A stretch of 64,000 nt of DNA, taken from the NCBI GenBank assembly GCA_030657355.1, contig CP131056.1:761001-825000 (forward strand), read 5' to 3'. The notes below the pieces were generated by a model, which saw only the letters and a list, made by a program, of their open reading frames with translations, searched no databases and was not told where the DNA came from. Source of the stretch: Radicibacter daui (lineage in GTDB: Bacteria > Pseudomonadota > Alphaproteobacteria > Radicibacterales > Radicibacteraceae). How positions within the stretch are numbered: position 1 is the first letter of the stretch; every line of letters starts with the position of its first letter. Of this stretch, positions 17,775-52,162 are shown in pieces. The translations under genes and the position numbers were made by a program.

Positions 17775-17914
17775 CCTCCCCAATTCGGGGAGGCGGCCCG
17801 GAGGGCGGTGGGGGTAATGAGGTGCAACCCGCCTCCGGCAGAGCCCGTGGCCGCCTCATTACCCCCATCCGCGGCTGCGCCGCACCTTCCCCCCCGCTGC
17901 GGCGCGGGGAAGGA
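17775..17914. repeat. Dispersed palindromic intergenic element, copy 1
   Basis: Composite repeat: an end hairpin CCTCCCC...GGGGAGG, then GGTGGGGGTAATGA, a variable centre of about 35 bases, TCATTACCCCCATCCGC, and a second end hairpin CCTTCCCC...GGGGAAGG. Copies 2 (19415-19550, inverted) and 3 (27151-27284) share the same arms. It lies directly after the DUF1835 gene's 3' end. Confidence 0.8.
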
Positions 17915-43944: not shown

Positions 43945-44098
43945 TCTTCCGTAGTCGAACTCGCTGACGGTCGCGAATGTCCTCTGACGTGTGGCTAACA
44001 TACAGATAATAAGTTATTTTCTTCACATATGTCTTCCGACGTTCGTCGGCGTCCGTTAGAATCCACGTCATGATTGGGGGTTGGCTTGTGGGTTGAAG

Positions 44099-45340
44099 AT
44101 GGCGCGAGTGACGAACCGGCTGACGGCCATGACCGTTCAGAAGCTGAAGGAACCCGGCAGATATGCGGACGGGGGTGGGCTCTATCTGCAGGTCGGGCCC
44201 ACGGGGGGTAAGAGCTGGCTTTTCCGGTACACTCGCCAAGGGAAGGCCCGCGAAATGGGACTCGGGGCCGTCAATGTGCTGTCGCTCGCCGACGCTCGCG
44301 AGGTAGCGACTTCTGTCCGGCAAGTTTTGGCTGCGGGTCTCGATCCTCTTGAGGCGCGGGAGGAGAGGCGGAGAACCCAGGAGGCGGAAGCCTCCAAAGG
44401 CATGACCTTCGCGCAATGCGCTGCCGCCTATATTGCCGCGCACAAACCCGGGTGGCGGAATGAGAAGCATGCCGCCCAATGGTCTGCGACGATCAAGACT
44501 TATGTAGAGCCGGTCTTTGGCACGTTGCCAGTTCGAGCCATCGACCTTGATAAGGTGCTGAAGGTCTTGGAACCCATCTGGCACCAGAAGCCTGAGACAG
44601 CGACGCGGTTACGGGGGCGTATTGAAGCTGTCTTGGATTGGGCGGCCGTACGCGGTTATCGCTCATCAGAGAACCCCGCCCGCTGGAGGGGGCATCTCGA
44701 CAAACTGCTGCCGCCAAGATCAAAGGTGCAAAGGGTCCGGCATCATCCCGCGCTGCCTTATGAGGAGATCAGCGTCTTTATGGCGGAGCTCCGCCAAAAG
44801 GAAGGGGTGGCTGCCCGCGCTTTGGAGTTTGCTATCCTGACGGCCTCTCGGACCAGCGAGGTGCTTAATGCCCGTTGGACGGAATTCGATTTTGATCTTG
44901 GAGTTTGGTGCATTCCAGGCGAGCGCATGAAGGCCGGGAAAGACCATAGGGTGCCCTTATCCGGGGCCGCAAAGGTTGTTCTAGGTCAGATGGCTGAAAT
45001 TCGATGCAGCGCTTTTGTCTTTCCCGGTCAGAAAAGGGACTCTCCACTCTCGAACATGGTGTTCTTGCAGTTGCTCAAAAGGTTGGGGCGACCTGATCTT
45101 ACGGCTCACGGCTTTCGCTCTTCCTTCAGAGATTGGGCCGCCGAGCGGACGGCTTTCTCTCGCGACGTGGCAGAGATGGCTCTCGCCCACAGCATCGGCG
45201 ACAAGGTTGAGGCCGCCTATCGCCGCGGCGATTTGTTCGATAAGCGGCGAGAGTTGATGGAAGCGTGGGCTAGTTTCTGTGCCGTTCCAGAAGGAGGGAC
45301 AGGAAAGATGTCGTCTGATGACGCGCGATTGATTGGGTAG
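44099..45340 (+). CDS. int: P4-type tyrosine integrase
   Basis: A 413-residue integrase with an N-terminal DUF4102 domain (YADGGGLYLQVGPTGGKSWL), a core-binding SAM-like domain, and a tyrosine recombinase catalytic domain. Catalytic residues visible: Arg in TASRTSEVL, HxxR in AHGFRSSFRDW, His in LAHSIGD and nucleophile Tyr in AAYRRGDLF. Start ATG 44099. An IS1595 element was inserted 51 bases after its stop. It should mediate integration and excision of the accessory region to its right. Confidence 0.93.
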   Translation: MARVTNRLTAMTVQKLKEPGRYADGGGLYLQVGPTGGKSWLFRYTRQGKAREMGLGAVNVLSLADAREVATSVRQVLAAGLDPLEAREERRRTQEAEASKGMTFAQCAAAYIAAHKPGWRNEKHAAQWSATIKTYVEPVFGTLPVRAIDLDKVLKVLEPIWHQKPETATRLRGRIEAVLDWAAVRGYRSSENPARWRGHLDKLLPPRSKVQRVRHHPALPYEEISVFMAELRQKEGVAARALEFAILTASRTSEVLNARWTEFDFDLGVWCIPGERMKAGKDHRVPLSGAAKVVLGQMAEIRCSAFVFPGQKRDSPLSNMVFLQLLKRLGRPDLTAHGFRSSFRDWAAERTAFSRDVAEMALAHSIGDKVEAAYRRGDLFDKRRELMEAWASFCAVPEGGTGKMSSDDARLIG

Positions 45341-45391
45341 CGCATTCAGAGGACTCAAGACAGACGCTGTAGCGTGGGTTGCTTTAAATAA

Positions 45392-46223
45392 GGTAATGCC
45401 TAACGAAGCTGGACCAAATCTGAGAGGATTTGGGTATGGCGAGTTGCACGGCATGTGGTTTTGGCTGGAGCTGGGTGCTTTCCGACGGGCGCCTGAAATG
45501 CCGTCGGTGCGGGCATCGCTGGCGGCGGCGAAGCTTATGGGACGCCTCGCGGCTGGACAGCCGGACCAAGACTGAACTGGTGCAGCGTTTTGTGTGGGGT
45601 GTGCCGGTCTATCGGCAGCGCTTTTCGCTGGCGGCTAGCCGTCCGGCGAGAGAGCGGTTTTACCGGCTCATCCGGTTTGCGATGGCACAGGCCGAGCAGC
45701 TGCGCGAACCCTTTGAAGGCAGCCTTGAATGCGACGAAACCACCTTTGGCGGCGCGCGCAAAGGCAAACGGGGCTGGGGTGCGGCCGGCAAGGTGATCGT
45801 CTTCGGGATCATCAAGCGCAATGGTCTTGTAAAGGCCGAGCCGATCCCTGCGCACGACCGGGCCTCGATCATGCAGGTGATCCAGGCGCACAGCCGGGAA
45901 GGCTCACTCTATTACACCGACCAGTGGCAGGCCTATGCCACCTTGCGCCTGCGCGGCGACCATGTCGTGATCCGCAAGGAGAAGGGGCGCCCCGTCGGCA
46001 GAGACCATATCAACGGCATCGAAGGCTTCTGGTCTTATGCCAAAAACTGGCTCTATCCGTACCGGGGCGTACCGAAAAAGTTCTTCCATCTCTACCTGGG
46101 TGAAACCTGCTACCGGTTCAACCATCGAGACGAAGACCTCAAGCCCTTGATTATCAAACTCTTGAAGGCAACCGCCTTCGAGGAAATTGACATCAATCCG
46201 GTCCAGGTTAGTTAGGCATTACC
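45392..46223 (+). mobile_element. IS1595-family insertion sequence, intact
   Basis: 832-bp element. The terminal inverted repeats are 24 bases, beginning GGTAATGCCTAAC at both ends (22 of 24 identical). An 8-bp target duplication TTAAATAA flanks it (45384-45391 and 46224-46231), the size typical of this family. The transposase frame is intact. Confidence 0.95.
45436..46215 (+). CDS. IS1595-family transposase
   Basis: A 259-residue ISXO2-type DDE transposase. An N-terminal zinc ribbon (CTAC...CRRC) precedes the catalytic core: Asp in LECDETTFGG, Asp in YYTDQWQAY, and the acidic residue in HINGIEGFWSYAK. Start ATG 45436. A 59-bp remnant of a second copy's 3' end lies at 60972-61030. Confidence 0.93.
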   Translation: MASCTACGFGWSWVLSDGRLKCRRCGHRWRRRSLWDASRLDSRTKTELVQRFVWGVPVYRQRFSLAASRPARERFYRLIRFAMAQAEQLREPFEGSLECDETTFGGARKGKRGWGAAGKVIVFGIIKRNGLVKAEPIPAHDRASIMQVIQAHSREGSLYYTDQWQAYATLRLRGDHVVIRKEKGRPVGRDHINGIEGFWSYAKNWLYPYRGVPKKFFHLYLGETCYRFNHRDEDLKPLIIKLLKATAFEEIDINPVQVS

Positions 46224-46255
46224 TTAAATAATGTCCCGATATCCCGATCAGTGCT

Positions 46256-46624
46256 TCAAGCGGGTTTCGCTGTGCGTTTAGGGGGCGAAGCTGGTGAGGG
46301 CGATGCCGCTAGGGCTTCGAGCTGCCGTACAGCGACCTGTAAGTCCCTATCTTGCAGAGTTCGCGCGATGTTCATCAGTCGCGCGAGCAATTCGGCCCGA
46401 TGAGGGGGCTCGTCGTGATCAACATCAAAGAAATCACGAACAGGCACATGCAGGGCTGTCCCCAGTCGCTCCAGCGTTTCAAAATTCGGTAGGCTGAGGC
46501 CTCTTTCCAAATTCGAAATAGCGTCGACTGACCGGTCTATTAAGTCGGCCAGTCGCTCCTGAGACAATCCCTGAGCCTTTCGCAGGTCCCTGAGCCGTCG
46601 TCCTACGCGGTCTTTTAGTGTCAT
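46256..46624 (-). CDS. XRE-family regulator
   Basis: A 122-residue HTH_3 repressor (LRDLRKAQGLSQERLADLID, ISNLERGLSLPNFETLERLG) with a short C-terminal helical tail. Divergent from a Sel1-repeat gene across a 312-base AT-rich gap that carries palindromes. It is a likely element-specific repressor. Confidence 0.85.
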   Translation of the reverse strand: MTLKDRVGRRLRDLRKAQGLSQERLADLIDRSVDAISNLERGLSLPNFETLERLGTALHVPVRDFFDVDHDEPPHRAELLARLMNIARTLQDRDLQVAVRQLEALAASPSPASPPKRTAKPA

Positions 46625-48110: not shown

Positions 48111-50906
48111 ATGAAAGATATGGGGAAAACGGATCGCATCGCCGGATCCGTAAATGAGTTCTGTTCTGCTGTGGGTATCGGTAGGACGCTTTTCTATCGG
48201 GAAGTCAGGCAGGGGCGTATCCGGATATTGAAGGCAGGCAGGAAAACGCTTGTTCCTGTCGCTGAACGAGAGGCCTATCTGAGGATCCTTGGGGGGGGCG
48301 GCCAAATGAAGCGCCACCACCAGTCGATTCCCTTTGCCGACATCAATGCCGCAGCCAGTCAGATTTTCCCCGAGCTCATCCGGCAGTGGTTTCCGAGCGG
48401 GCGAGCCAACGGTAATACGTGGCGCGTTGGAAATCTGGCGGGGGAGCCAGGTCGGTCGCTGAGTATTATAGTGTCTGGACCGCAATGTGGCCGCTGGAAG
48501 GATTTTGCTACCAATCAAGGCGGGGCTGATCCGATCTCGCTGTTTGCAGCTAAGTTGGGGGTCGGCCAGGCTGAGGGCGCCATGCAACTTGGCCAGATGC
48601 TGGGGGTGGGAGGGGCTGGCGGCCAGCGCTTTTCCGATAGTCGCCCCCCATCCCGGAGCCTTGAAAAGACGGCTGTGTCGTCTTCCATGGTCGATGATGA
48701 GCAGGCTGGACGCATTGGCAAGGCTCAAGCCTTACTCCGAGACTGCGTACCGGTCGGTGGAACGCCTGCCAGCCACTACCTTGCGGAACGTGCAATTGAC
48801 CCGGAGAAATTGCCTGTCGCCGAAGTTGGGTGGCATCAGTCGAGCGGCGCCGTTTTGTATGCTGCTCGAAACCCGAACGGGGTTCTGACGGCTGTTCAGC
48901 GCGTCTTTCTCGACCCGGACGGCAGGGCGCAGATAGGGGTGGCGGGCAGGAAGAATAAGCGGACAAACGGCGTGCTAAAGGGCTCTGCCTTTACGCTCGC
49001 TGGAAACGGCTCCGACATCCTTATTTGTGATGGTCCAGAAGATGCCTTGTCCCTATGGCAGGCGACCGGTGCTCCGGTTCGGTGCGCCTTCGGCATGGAC
49101 TGGGGGGAGATTCCCCTGCCCGAGAGTGGGGCGGTGGTTTTGGTCGCTGACAATGACGATCAGGATAGCGCTGCTGACAATGCGGTCACAAAGGCCGCCA
49201 GTCGCCTAATGGAGCGGGGCTATCGTGTGAAACTCACGCGTCCCCCAGCCGATGTTAAGGATGCCAACGATCTGCTGCGGAAACTGGGCCCTGATGCCGT
49301 CAGGTCAATGGTGGCTGCTGCTGAGCAGGTACCTGCGGCGGAGCTTGGGCAAGAGGGCGCTCCTACCGACCTCAAGTCGGAGGTTATTCGCCTTAGTAAA
49401 CTCGACCCGCTTGACTACGCGCTGGAGCAGAGTGCGGCTGCAGCACGCTTCGGACTGAAGCTCGCAGTCTTGGAACGATTGGTTGAGGCAGCTCGCTCAC
49501 GTAAAACGTCAGTAGGAGGTTTGGACCTATTTCCTGTCATCGAGCCTTGGCCCTCGCCAGTGCCGCTCGGGGAGCTTCTTGACGATATGTGCGACACCAT
49601 GCGGCGCTTTATTGTCTGTGACCCCGGCGTTTTGAAGGCTGTGGCGTTGTGGGCGGCGTTTACGTGGCTGATCGACAAAGTGCAAGTGGCCCCTCTCTTG
49701 GTGATCACAGCGCCCGAGAAACGCTGCGGAAAGTCAATGCTTCTTTCTCTGCTTAAGCGGCTGGTTCGTCGCCCTCTGCCCGCCGCCAATATTACGACGG
49801 CCGCCACCTTTCGGGCTCTTGCTGGTTGGAAGCCGACCTTGCTGATTGATGAGGCCGACACCTTTTTGGGAGGGAATGCCGAATTGCGGGGCATTCTCAA
49901 CTCGGGACAGACCCGCGACTTCGCCTACTCTCTCCGTATCGAGGGTGATAGTCGCGAACTGATGGCTTACGGGACCTGGGGAGCAAAGGCGATTGCCGGT
50001 ATTGGTCACTTGGAAGGCACCATTATGGATCGCTCGATTGTGGTGGAACTCCGCCGTAAACGGGAGGGAGAGGTGGTGGAAAAACTGCGCCATGCTGAGC
50101 CGGAAGACTTTGAACGGTTGGCCCGAATGCTCGCCCGCTTTGCACAAGATGCAGGGGAAATGATCGGGGCGATGCGACCTGACGCGCCCGTTGAGTTGAA
50201 TGACCGCGCGCAAGATAACTGGGAGCCACTCTTGGCTATCGCCGATCATGCCGGGGGGCATTGGCCAGAAACCGCGCGGGCAGCCGCTTTGCAAATTTCA
50301 GGAAAAGAAAGTGAGGCGCTGTCCGTATCTGCGGAGTTGCTGTCCGACATCCGCGATATCTTCGAGCGTCTGGGATGCGACAAGATTACGACGGTTGATC
50401 TGCTGGCGGCGCTAAATGCGAACGAGACGGCGCCTTGGTCGACCTATAACAAGGGGGAGCCTTTGACGCCGCGCAATCTCGCTAAATTGCTTGGAGAATA
50501 CCGCATTAGGCCGCGCAATATTTCGCTGAAAGGGACGAGTCCGAAGGGGTACCTTACGAGCAACTTCGAGGACGCTTTTGGACGATATCTGCCGCCAAAG
50601 GCCGCAGCGGCTGAGGTGGCCTCAATGTCACCGGCTCCGAAGCTGTCGGATTTTTCCAGTCCGCCAGGGGCGGATTTCACGCCGTCATTGCCTCCGCCGG
50701 GAACTCCCTTTCCCCCGCCACCTACTCCGCCACCATATGTGGCCCCGAAGTCTGTATCGTCGTTTGGCGCCGGACGGCGGCCCATGCCGAATAGCGGACA
50801 TCCGCAGCCTCTGGCGGCGGATGTCTCGCCTTCCGCTGGTCTCAAGGCCGCAGAAAGCCTAGATCCTAGCGTTATAGCGGATAAATCGAAAGGTACTGGA
50901 GAGTAG
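48111..50906 (+). CDS. Excisionase-like HTH fused to primase-helicase (P4 alpha-like)
   Basis: A 931-residue single frame. Residues 1-62 are an excisionase-type HTH (SVNEFCSAVGIGRTLFYREV). A replication protein starts at an internal ATG (48306): a primase-like N-terminal region, a TOPRIM (DILICDGPEDALSLWQAT, VLVADNDDQDS), then a DUF3631-type helicase with Walker A APEKRCGKSMLL, Walker B TLLIDEAD and an Arg finger near DRSIVVELRR, and a Pro-rich tail. It probably primes and unwinds the element's own DNA. The fusion crosses a G8 tract; one G less would end the HTH at a TGA overlapping the internal ATG. The first start could instead be the GTG at 48078 or the ATG at 48120. Confidence 0.85.
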   Translation: MKDMGKTDRIAGSVNEFCSAVGIGRTLFYREVRQGRIRILKAGRKTLVPVAEREAYLRILGGGGQMKRHHQSIPFADINAAASQIFPELIRQWFPSGRANGNTWRVGNLAGEPGRSLSIIVSGPQCGRWKDFATNQGGADPISLFAAKLGVGQAEGAMQLGQMLGVGGAGGQRFSDSRPPSRSLEKTAVSSSMVDDEQAGRIGKAQALLRDCVPVGGTPASHYLAERAIDPEKLPVAEVGWHQSSGAVLYAARNPNGVLTAVQRVFLDPDGRAQIGVAGRKNKRTNGVLKGSAFTLAGNGSDILICDGPEDALSLWQATGAPVRCAFGMDWGEIPLPESGAVVLVADNDDQDSAADNAVTKAASRLMERGYRVKLTRPPADVKDANDLLRKLGPDAVRSMVAAAEQVPAAELGQEGAPTDLKSEVIRLSKLDPLDYALEQSAAAARFGLKLAVLERLVEAARSRKTSVGGLDLFPVIEPWPSPVPLGELLDDMCDTMRRFIVCDPGVLKAVALWAAFTWLIDKVQVAPLLVITAPEKRCGKSMLLSLLKRLVRRPLPAANITTAATFRALAGWKPTLLIDEADTFLGGNAELRGILNSGQTRDFAYSLRIEGDSRELMAYGTWGAKAIAGIGHLEGTIMDRSIVVELRRKREGEVVEKLRHAEPEDFERLARMLARFAQDAGEMIGAMRPDAPVELNDRAQDNWEPLLAIADHAGGHWPETARAAALQISGKESEALSVSAELLSDIRDIFERLGCDKITTVDLLAALNANETAPWSTYNKGEPLTPRNLAKLLGEYRIRPRNISLKGTSPKGYLTSNFEDAFGRYLPPKAAAAEVASMSPAPKLSDFSSPPGADFTPSLPPPGTPFPPPPTPPPYVAPKSVSSFGAGRRPMPNSGHPQPLAADVSPSAGLKAAESLDPSVIADKSKGTGE
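48291..48298 (+). other. G8 homopolymer at the HTH-primase junction
   Basis: Eight Gs. With G8 the reading continues LGGGGQ into the primase ATG. With G7 the first frame would read LGGAAK and stop at a TGA that overlaps the primase ATG by four bases (ATGA). Confidence 0.7.
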
Positions 50907-50920
50907 TCTCTGAAGAGATG

Positions 50921-50974
50921 TATCCGCGCCCCGCTGCTACCGACCAAGCCGGTGGCAGCGGCGGGGCGCGGATA
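50921..50974. repeat. Long hairpin after the primase gene
   Basis: Perfect 14-bp arms TATCCGCGCCCCGC and GCGGGGCGCGGATA, with a further paired inner segment (TGCTACCG with CGGTGGCA). No T run follows on either strand. It could be a terminator-like or replication structure. Confidence 0.65.
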
Positions 50975-52056: not shown

Positions 52057-52162
52057 ATTCCCTTACCCTGACACCTCCTTTTGGGGAGCGCATCTCTTAA
52101 GGCGGAGCGCTGTTGCGCCCGCCAAAGGCGCTCCCCAAAAGGAGGTGTCAGGGTAAGGGAAT
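52057..52162. repeat. 35-bp perfect inverted repeat, 106-base cruciform
   Basis: Arms 52057-52091 and 52128-52162 are perfectly complementary over 35 bases (outer end ATTCCCTTACCCTGACACC). The 36-base centre contains a second stem (GGCGGAGCGC with GCGCCCGCC). It starts 66 bases after the nitrilase-like gene. No target duplication is clear. It could be a MITE-like element, a replication origin structure or a strong bidirectional terminator. Confidence 0.85.

What the first reader, a model, noticed from the sequence alone, without database searches (positions are those of the whole stretch)
48111..50906. G8 tract may switch between a fused and split excisionase-primase
The sequence shows an excisionase-type HTH joined in frame to a P4-like primase-helicase across a run of eight Gs. 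With seven Gs the HTH would end at a TGA that overlaps the primase ATG (ATGA), the normal gene-pair layout of integrative elements. Poly-G tracts of this length slip in replication, and sometimes in transcription. The element could therefore toggle between separate Xis-like and primase proteins and a fusion that ties excision control to replication. A plain indel or sequencing error is the main alternative.
Basis: partly seen in the sequence, partly recalled or inferred. Interest (0 to 1): 0.72.

Follow-up and report, generated by a model that had tools for sequence, protein, structure and literature searches.

The report
HTH gene fused to primase by G8
In one integrated mobile element, a small excisionase-type DNA-binding gene and the replication (primase) gene behind it read as a single protein because of an eight-G run, but every related element examined keeps the two genes apart and the G run is most simply the primase's ribosome-binding site plus a one-base length change, so this is probably an ordinary indel and not a demonstrated switch.

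Summary
In detail: a G8 tract (48291-48298) joins a 60-residue excisionase-type winged HTH in frame to a Toprim/DUF3631 replication protein. G5, G8 and G11 give the fusion; G7 and G10 give a 65-66 aa HTH ending at a TGA that overlaps the primase ATG (48306).
Relatives support 'two separate genes' as the normal state. In 161 related loci, 74 HTH ORFs and 159 primase-side ORFs never coincide. Relatives' primase genes start near ATG 48306, and their HTH proteins end where this HTH would end with G7.
The switch itself has no support. No relative has a G run of 7 or more at the junction (56 pairs, maximum 6). The tract makes a strong Shine-Dalgarno sequence for ATG 48306 (-10.3 kcal/mol at G8, -10.1 at G7). 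An A follows about one ATG in three, so the ATGA overlap is weak evidence.
Best reading: a normal HTH-primase gene pair whose Shine-Dalgarno G tract lies in a +1 state, from a real indel or an assembly error. Free primase should still be made by internal initiation; only the free HTH is lost. Reads and sister strains could not be examined.

The parts
48111..48290 (+). excisionase/AlpA/TorI-type winged helix-turn-helix domain (residues 1-60 of the fused ORF); alternative start ATG at 48120
   Evidence: HTH_17 in 23 of 23 aligned relatives, 'excise' domain in 19 of 23; AlphaFold pLDDT 82; closest solved fold mycobacteriophage Pukovnik Xis
48291..48298 (+). G8 tract; joins the two frames and pairs well with the anti-Shine-Dalgarno sequence 7 nt before ATG 48306
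48306..50906 (+). Toprim/DUF7146/DUF3631 primase-ATPase replication protein, likely native start ATG 48306
   Evidence: relatives' ORFs start near this point (MKNRLDFDAIN..., MPETIDFAGIN..., against MKRHHQSIPFADIN...)
44081..45340 (+). tyrosine recombinase (integrase) of the same region
   Evidence: Arm-DNA-bind_3, Phage_int_M, Phage_integrase
46256..46624 (-). Cro/C1-type HTH regulator (repressor candidate)

Best explanation
This is an ordinary two-gene replication/excision module of an integrated element: a ~65-aa excisionase-family wHTH gene followed by a Toprim/DUF3631 primase gene. The end of the HTH gene doubles as the Shine-Dalgarno sequence of the primase, and here that sequence is a G tract. 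In this assembly the tract has 8 Gs, so the HTH stop is out of frame and the ORFs read as one. The cause is a one-base length change, either a real indel or a sequencing/assembly error, and not a programmed toggle. Shown: the tract, the fused frame, the domains, split genes in all relatives examined, and computed Shine-Dalgarno strength. Inferred: that the ancestor had G7 (or another split state), and that primase is still made from ATG 48306 by internal initiation whatever the tract length.
For: No fusion among 74 HTH ORFs and 159 primase-side ORFs from 161 related loci. Relatives' HTH proteins mostly end 5-15 residues after the last helix, where the window HTH would end with G7. Relatives' primases start at the position of M48306. 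The G tract gives a predicted -10.3 kcal/mol pairing with CACCUCCUU, 7 nt from the ATG, and -10.1 at G7; only 2.5% of random window positions are as strong. Shorter G-rich stretches (G4-G5) sit at the same place in several relatives, e.g. gaGGGGGtaaATG in L027 and L084 and gcaGGGGGtgaATGatg in L122. Singleton frame transitions are likely indels or sequencing errors (PMC3711429), and G-tract lengths in databases need caution (PMC9187656).
Against: No close relative (over about 55% protein identity) was found, so the ancestral sequence at this junction is not seen directly. In-frame adjacent genes with a stop between them also occur (L011, L025, L027), so the fusion could have come from loss of an in-frame stop instead. 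Other runs of 8 or more in coding parts of this genome lie inside long ORFs, which speaks mildly against widespread homopolymer errors.
Confidence: 0.75

Rival explanations
1. Sequencing or assembly error (a sub-case of the best explanation, scored on its own): the true tract is G7 or G10 and the genes are separate with an ATGA overlap.
For: All relatives are split; homopolymer miscounts are common; the G7 product has the right length and end.
Against: The genome is in 2 contigs and other coding-region runs of 8 or more lie inside long intact ORFs, so homopolymer errors are not obviously rampant.
Confidence: 0.3
2. Genuine, functional gene fusion: G8 is fixed and the element uses an HTH-primase fusion, the wHTH acting as the DNA-binding part of the replication protein.
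For: The sequence as given encodes it without interruption; the Gly4 linker would be flexible; primase and replication-initiator genes are reported to be sometimes fused in PICIs (PMC6092414).
Against: No relative shares the HTH-primase fusion; free HTH would be lost; internal initiation at ATG 48306 is predicted to be strong.
Confidence: 0.15
3. Reversible slippage switch (replication or transcription) between separate Xis-like and primase proteins and a fusion.
For: G5/G8/G11 and G7/G10 give the two states. A G-tract switch between two split ORFs and one joined ORF is shown in bifidobacterial pilus genes (PMC9187656).
Against: G8 is shorter than the G11 tract quoted for that case; no relative has a tract of 7 or more G; the Shine-Dalgarno role explains the tract; most known phase-variable genes encode products exposed to the cell's environment (PMC3711429).
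Confidence: 0.06

Closest known systems
HTH/AlpA-primase gene pairs of integrated elements and PICI/P4-type satellites (PMC6092414)
   Same: integrase, regulator, excisionase-family HTH and a primase-replication gene on the same strand
   Different: there the HTH and primase are separate genes; no helper-phage or packaging genes were identified here; the primase carries DUF3631
G-tract slippage switch of bifidobacterial sortase-dependent pili (PMC9187656)
   Same: a G tract lies between two ORFs and its length decides whether they are joined
   Different: there length variation was measured experimentally; here there is one assembly, a shorter tract, and a Shine-Dalgarno role available
DUF3631 (RepAM-type) replication proteins of actinobacterial AICEs (PMC3218068)
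   Same: DUF3631 replication protein in an integrated element with an integrase and an RDF-type protein
   Different: here DUF3631 is joined to a Toprim primase part and the nearest relatives are proteobacterial

Membership tests
excisionase-family DNA-binding protein (TIGR01764/HTH_17) | sequence match to the family model | tested here: inconclusive
   TIGR01764 E=1.4e-5, 25.3 bits against cutoff 28.8; HTH_17 20 bits against 27; 19 and 23 of 23 aligned members match at E<=0.01
excisionase-family DNA-binding protein (TIGR01764/HTH_17) | winged HTH fold like known Xis proteins | tested here: met
   model pLDDT 82; best PDB matches Pukovnik Xis 4j2n (TMq 0.66, probability 1.00) and, lower down, RdfS 8dgl, though Foldseek E-values are weak
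excisionase-family DNA-binding protein (TIGR01764/HTH_17) | promotes excision by its integrase | not testable with these tools
   needs an excision assay
Toprim/DUF3631 phage-type primase-ATPase | Toprim_3 and DUF3631 domains above curated cutoffs | tested here: met
   Toprim_3 39.2 bits (cutoff 27.2), DUF3631 176.7 (cutoff 24); PHROG 'DNA primase'
slipped-strand phase-variable gene | length variation of the repeat between clones or strains | not testable with these tools
   no reads and no sister strain held; only the window's own genome in its order
slipped-strand phase-variable gene | repeat conserved at the same site in homologues | tested here: not met
   56 HTH/primase junctions, maximum G run 6, none of 7 or more
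translationally coupled gene pair | downstream start close to upstream stop, with a Shine-Dalgarno sequence | tested here: inconclusive
   21 of 56 relative pairs have a gap of 30 nt or less; strong Shine-Dalgarno here; but at G8 the window itself has no HTH stop at the junction

The most novel reading that the evidence does not exclude
A G-tract length switch in a mobile element that alternates between free excisionase plus primase and an excisionase-primase fusion, coupling excision to replication.
Probability: 0.06. Interest if true: 0.7.

Novelty: new member of a known kind. Interest (0 to 1): 0.2.

Why it matters
If the switch were real it would be a new way to tie excision to replication in an integrated element. 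As the evidence stands, it is a useful example of how a G-rich Shine-Dalgarno sequence at a gene overlap can turn a one-base length change, or a sequencing error, into an apparent fusion protein.

Tried and rejected
Close relatives or sister strains: the order, relatives, class and phylum genome searches gave no close relative and no fused ORF. The exact junction pattern has no hit in viral contigs and DNA similarity finds none in plasmids. Phages: only 3 distant protein hits. tRNA target: none in the window. Rfam: nothing. The alternative that an in-frame TGA/TAG stop before the ATG was lost (as laid out in L011 and L025) cannot be excluded.

Full report
Observation. The G8 tract at 48291-48298 and the in-frame joining of the HTH ORF to the primase are in the sequence as described. 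Reading the junction with different tract lengths gives a fusion at G5, G8 and G11, a 65- or 66-aa HTH at G7 and G10, and a ~100-aa dead end at G6 and G9. In this 5.06-Mb genome there are 14 runs of 8 or more and 98 runs of exactly 7, so such a run is uncommon (about 0.18 per 64 kb) but not exceptional. The window holds one other run of 7 (17889-17895).

Proteins. Residues 1-60 form a winged HTH. HTH_17 matches all 23 aligned family members and the 'excise' domain 19 of 23, although the window's own scores are just below the curated cutoffs. Profile matches in the PDB are TorI (Tor inhibition protein), an AlpA-family regulator and Gp37 (Pukovnik Xis, 4j2n). The AlphaFold model (pLDDT 82) is closest to mycobacteriophage Pukovnik Xis. 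Residues 66-931 carry DUF7146, Toprim_3 and DUF3631 and match PHROG DNA primases. 'P4-like' is therefore loose.

Relatives. Related loci came from GTDB contigs, class, kinship and phylum genome sets, viral contigs and chosen regions. Across 161 loci, 74 HTH ORFs and 159 primase-side ORFs were found and none was both; the longest HTH ORF is 172 aa. In 56 neighbouring HTH/primase pairs the longest G run around the HTH stop is 6 (one case), then 5 (13 cases); none reaches 7. The HTH genes mostly end 5-15 residues after the last helix, where this one would end with G7, and the primase genes start at the position of M48306. The closest overall relative (L011, Rhodospirillales bin) has an ORF ending in TGA immediately before an ATG in the same frame, then ...MRAHHLSIPYGAIN, matching MKRHHQSIPFADIN. 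That its upstream ORF is an HTH was judged by eye only; the profile search did not list it.

Role of the tract. GGGGGGGG lies 7 nt before ATG 48306. Predicted pairing with CACCUCCUU is -10.3 kcal/mol, against -10.1 for G7 and -9.0 for G5, close to the strongest Shine-Dalgarno sequences of neighbouring genes; 2.5% of random positions do as well. Several relatives have G4-G5 stretches at the same place, such as gaGGGGGtaaATG. The primase is thus expected from ATG 48306 at any tract length; the length decides only the fate of the HTH.

How suggestive is the geometry? The ATGA overlap at G7 needs only that an A follow the ATG, which holds for 21 of 67 first ATGs of long ORFs in this window. A stop in a given frame within nine codons of a random position has a chance of 0.16. 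So the layout is consistent with a broken gene pair but is not strong evidence by itself. The relatives carry the argument.

Is G8 real? It cannot be decided here: reads are not available, no sister strain is held, and the junction pattern is absent from viral contigs. Other runs of 8 or more in coding parts of this genome lie inside long ORFs, a mild argument against pervasive homopolymer error. Published work shows both that G-tract joining of split ORFs can be a real switch (bifidobacterial pili, PMC9187656) and that database tract lengths can be wrong (same paper), and that isolated frame transitions are likely indels or errors (PMC3711429).

Verdict. Observation confirmed; interpretation partly supported. 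The most likely case is an ordinary excisionase-primase gene pair with a G-rich Shine-Dalgarno sequence whose length change fuses the frames, by real indel or sequencing error. A toggle is possible but has no direct evidence (about 0.06).

Noticed in passing
45384-46231: IS1595-like insertion sequence (transposase 45430-46215) with GGTAATGCCTAAC inverted ends and an 8-bp target duplication TTAAATAA, inserted just downstream of the integrase gene.
   Followed up: partly
52057-52162: A perfect 35-nt inverted repeat with a 36-nt loop in a gene-poor stretch of the element region.
   Followed up: no
50921-50974: A 21-nt, 90% complementary G+C-rich hairpin directly after the primase stop codon, a possible terminator.
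   Followed up: no
L017, L047, L108, L124, L043, L181 (right after the HTH stop): Strong C-run/G-run hairpins (e.g. AAACCCCCACGCGCTGCAACGCATGGGGG) follow the HTH gene in many relatives, like an attenuator or terminator between HTH and primase.
   Followed up: partly
L011, L131, L135, L136, L137, L138, L141, L181: The domain matching residues 66-167 of the window protein is a separate ORF of about 105-125 aa in several relatives, so the primase itself looks modular.
   Followed up: partly
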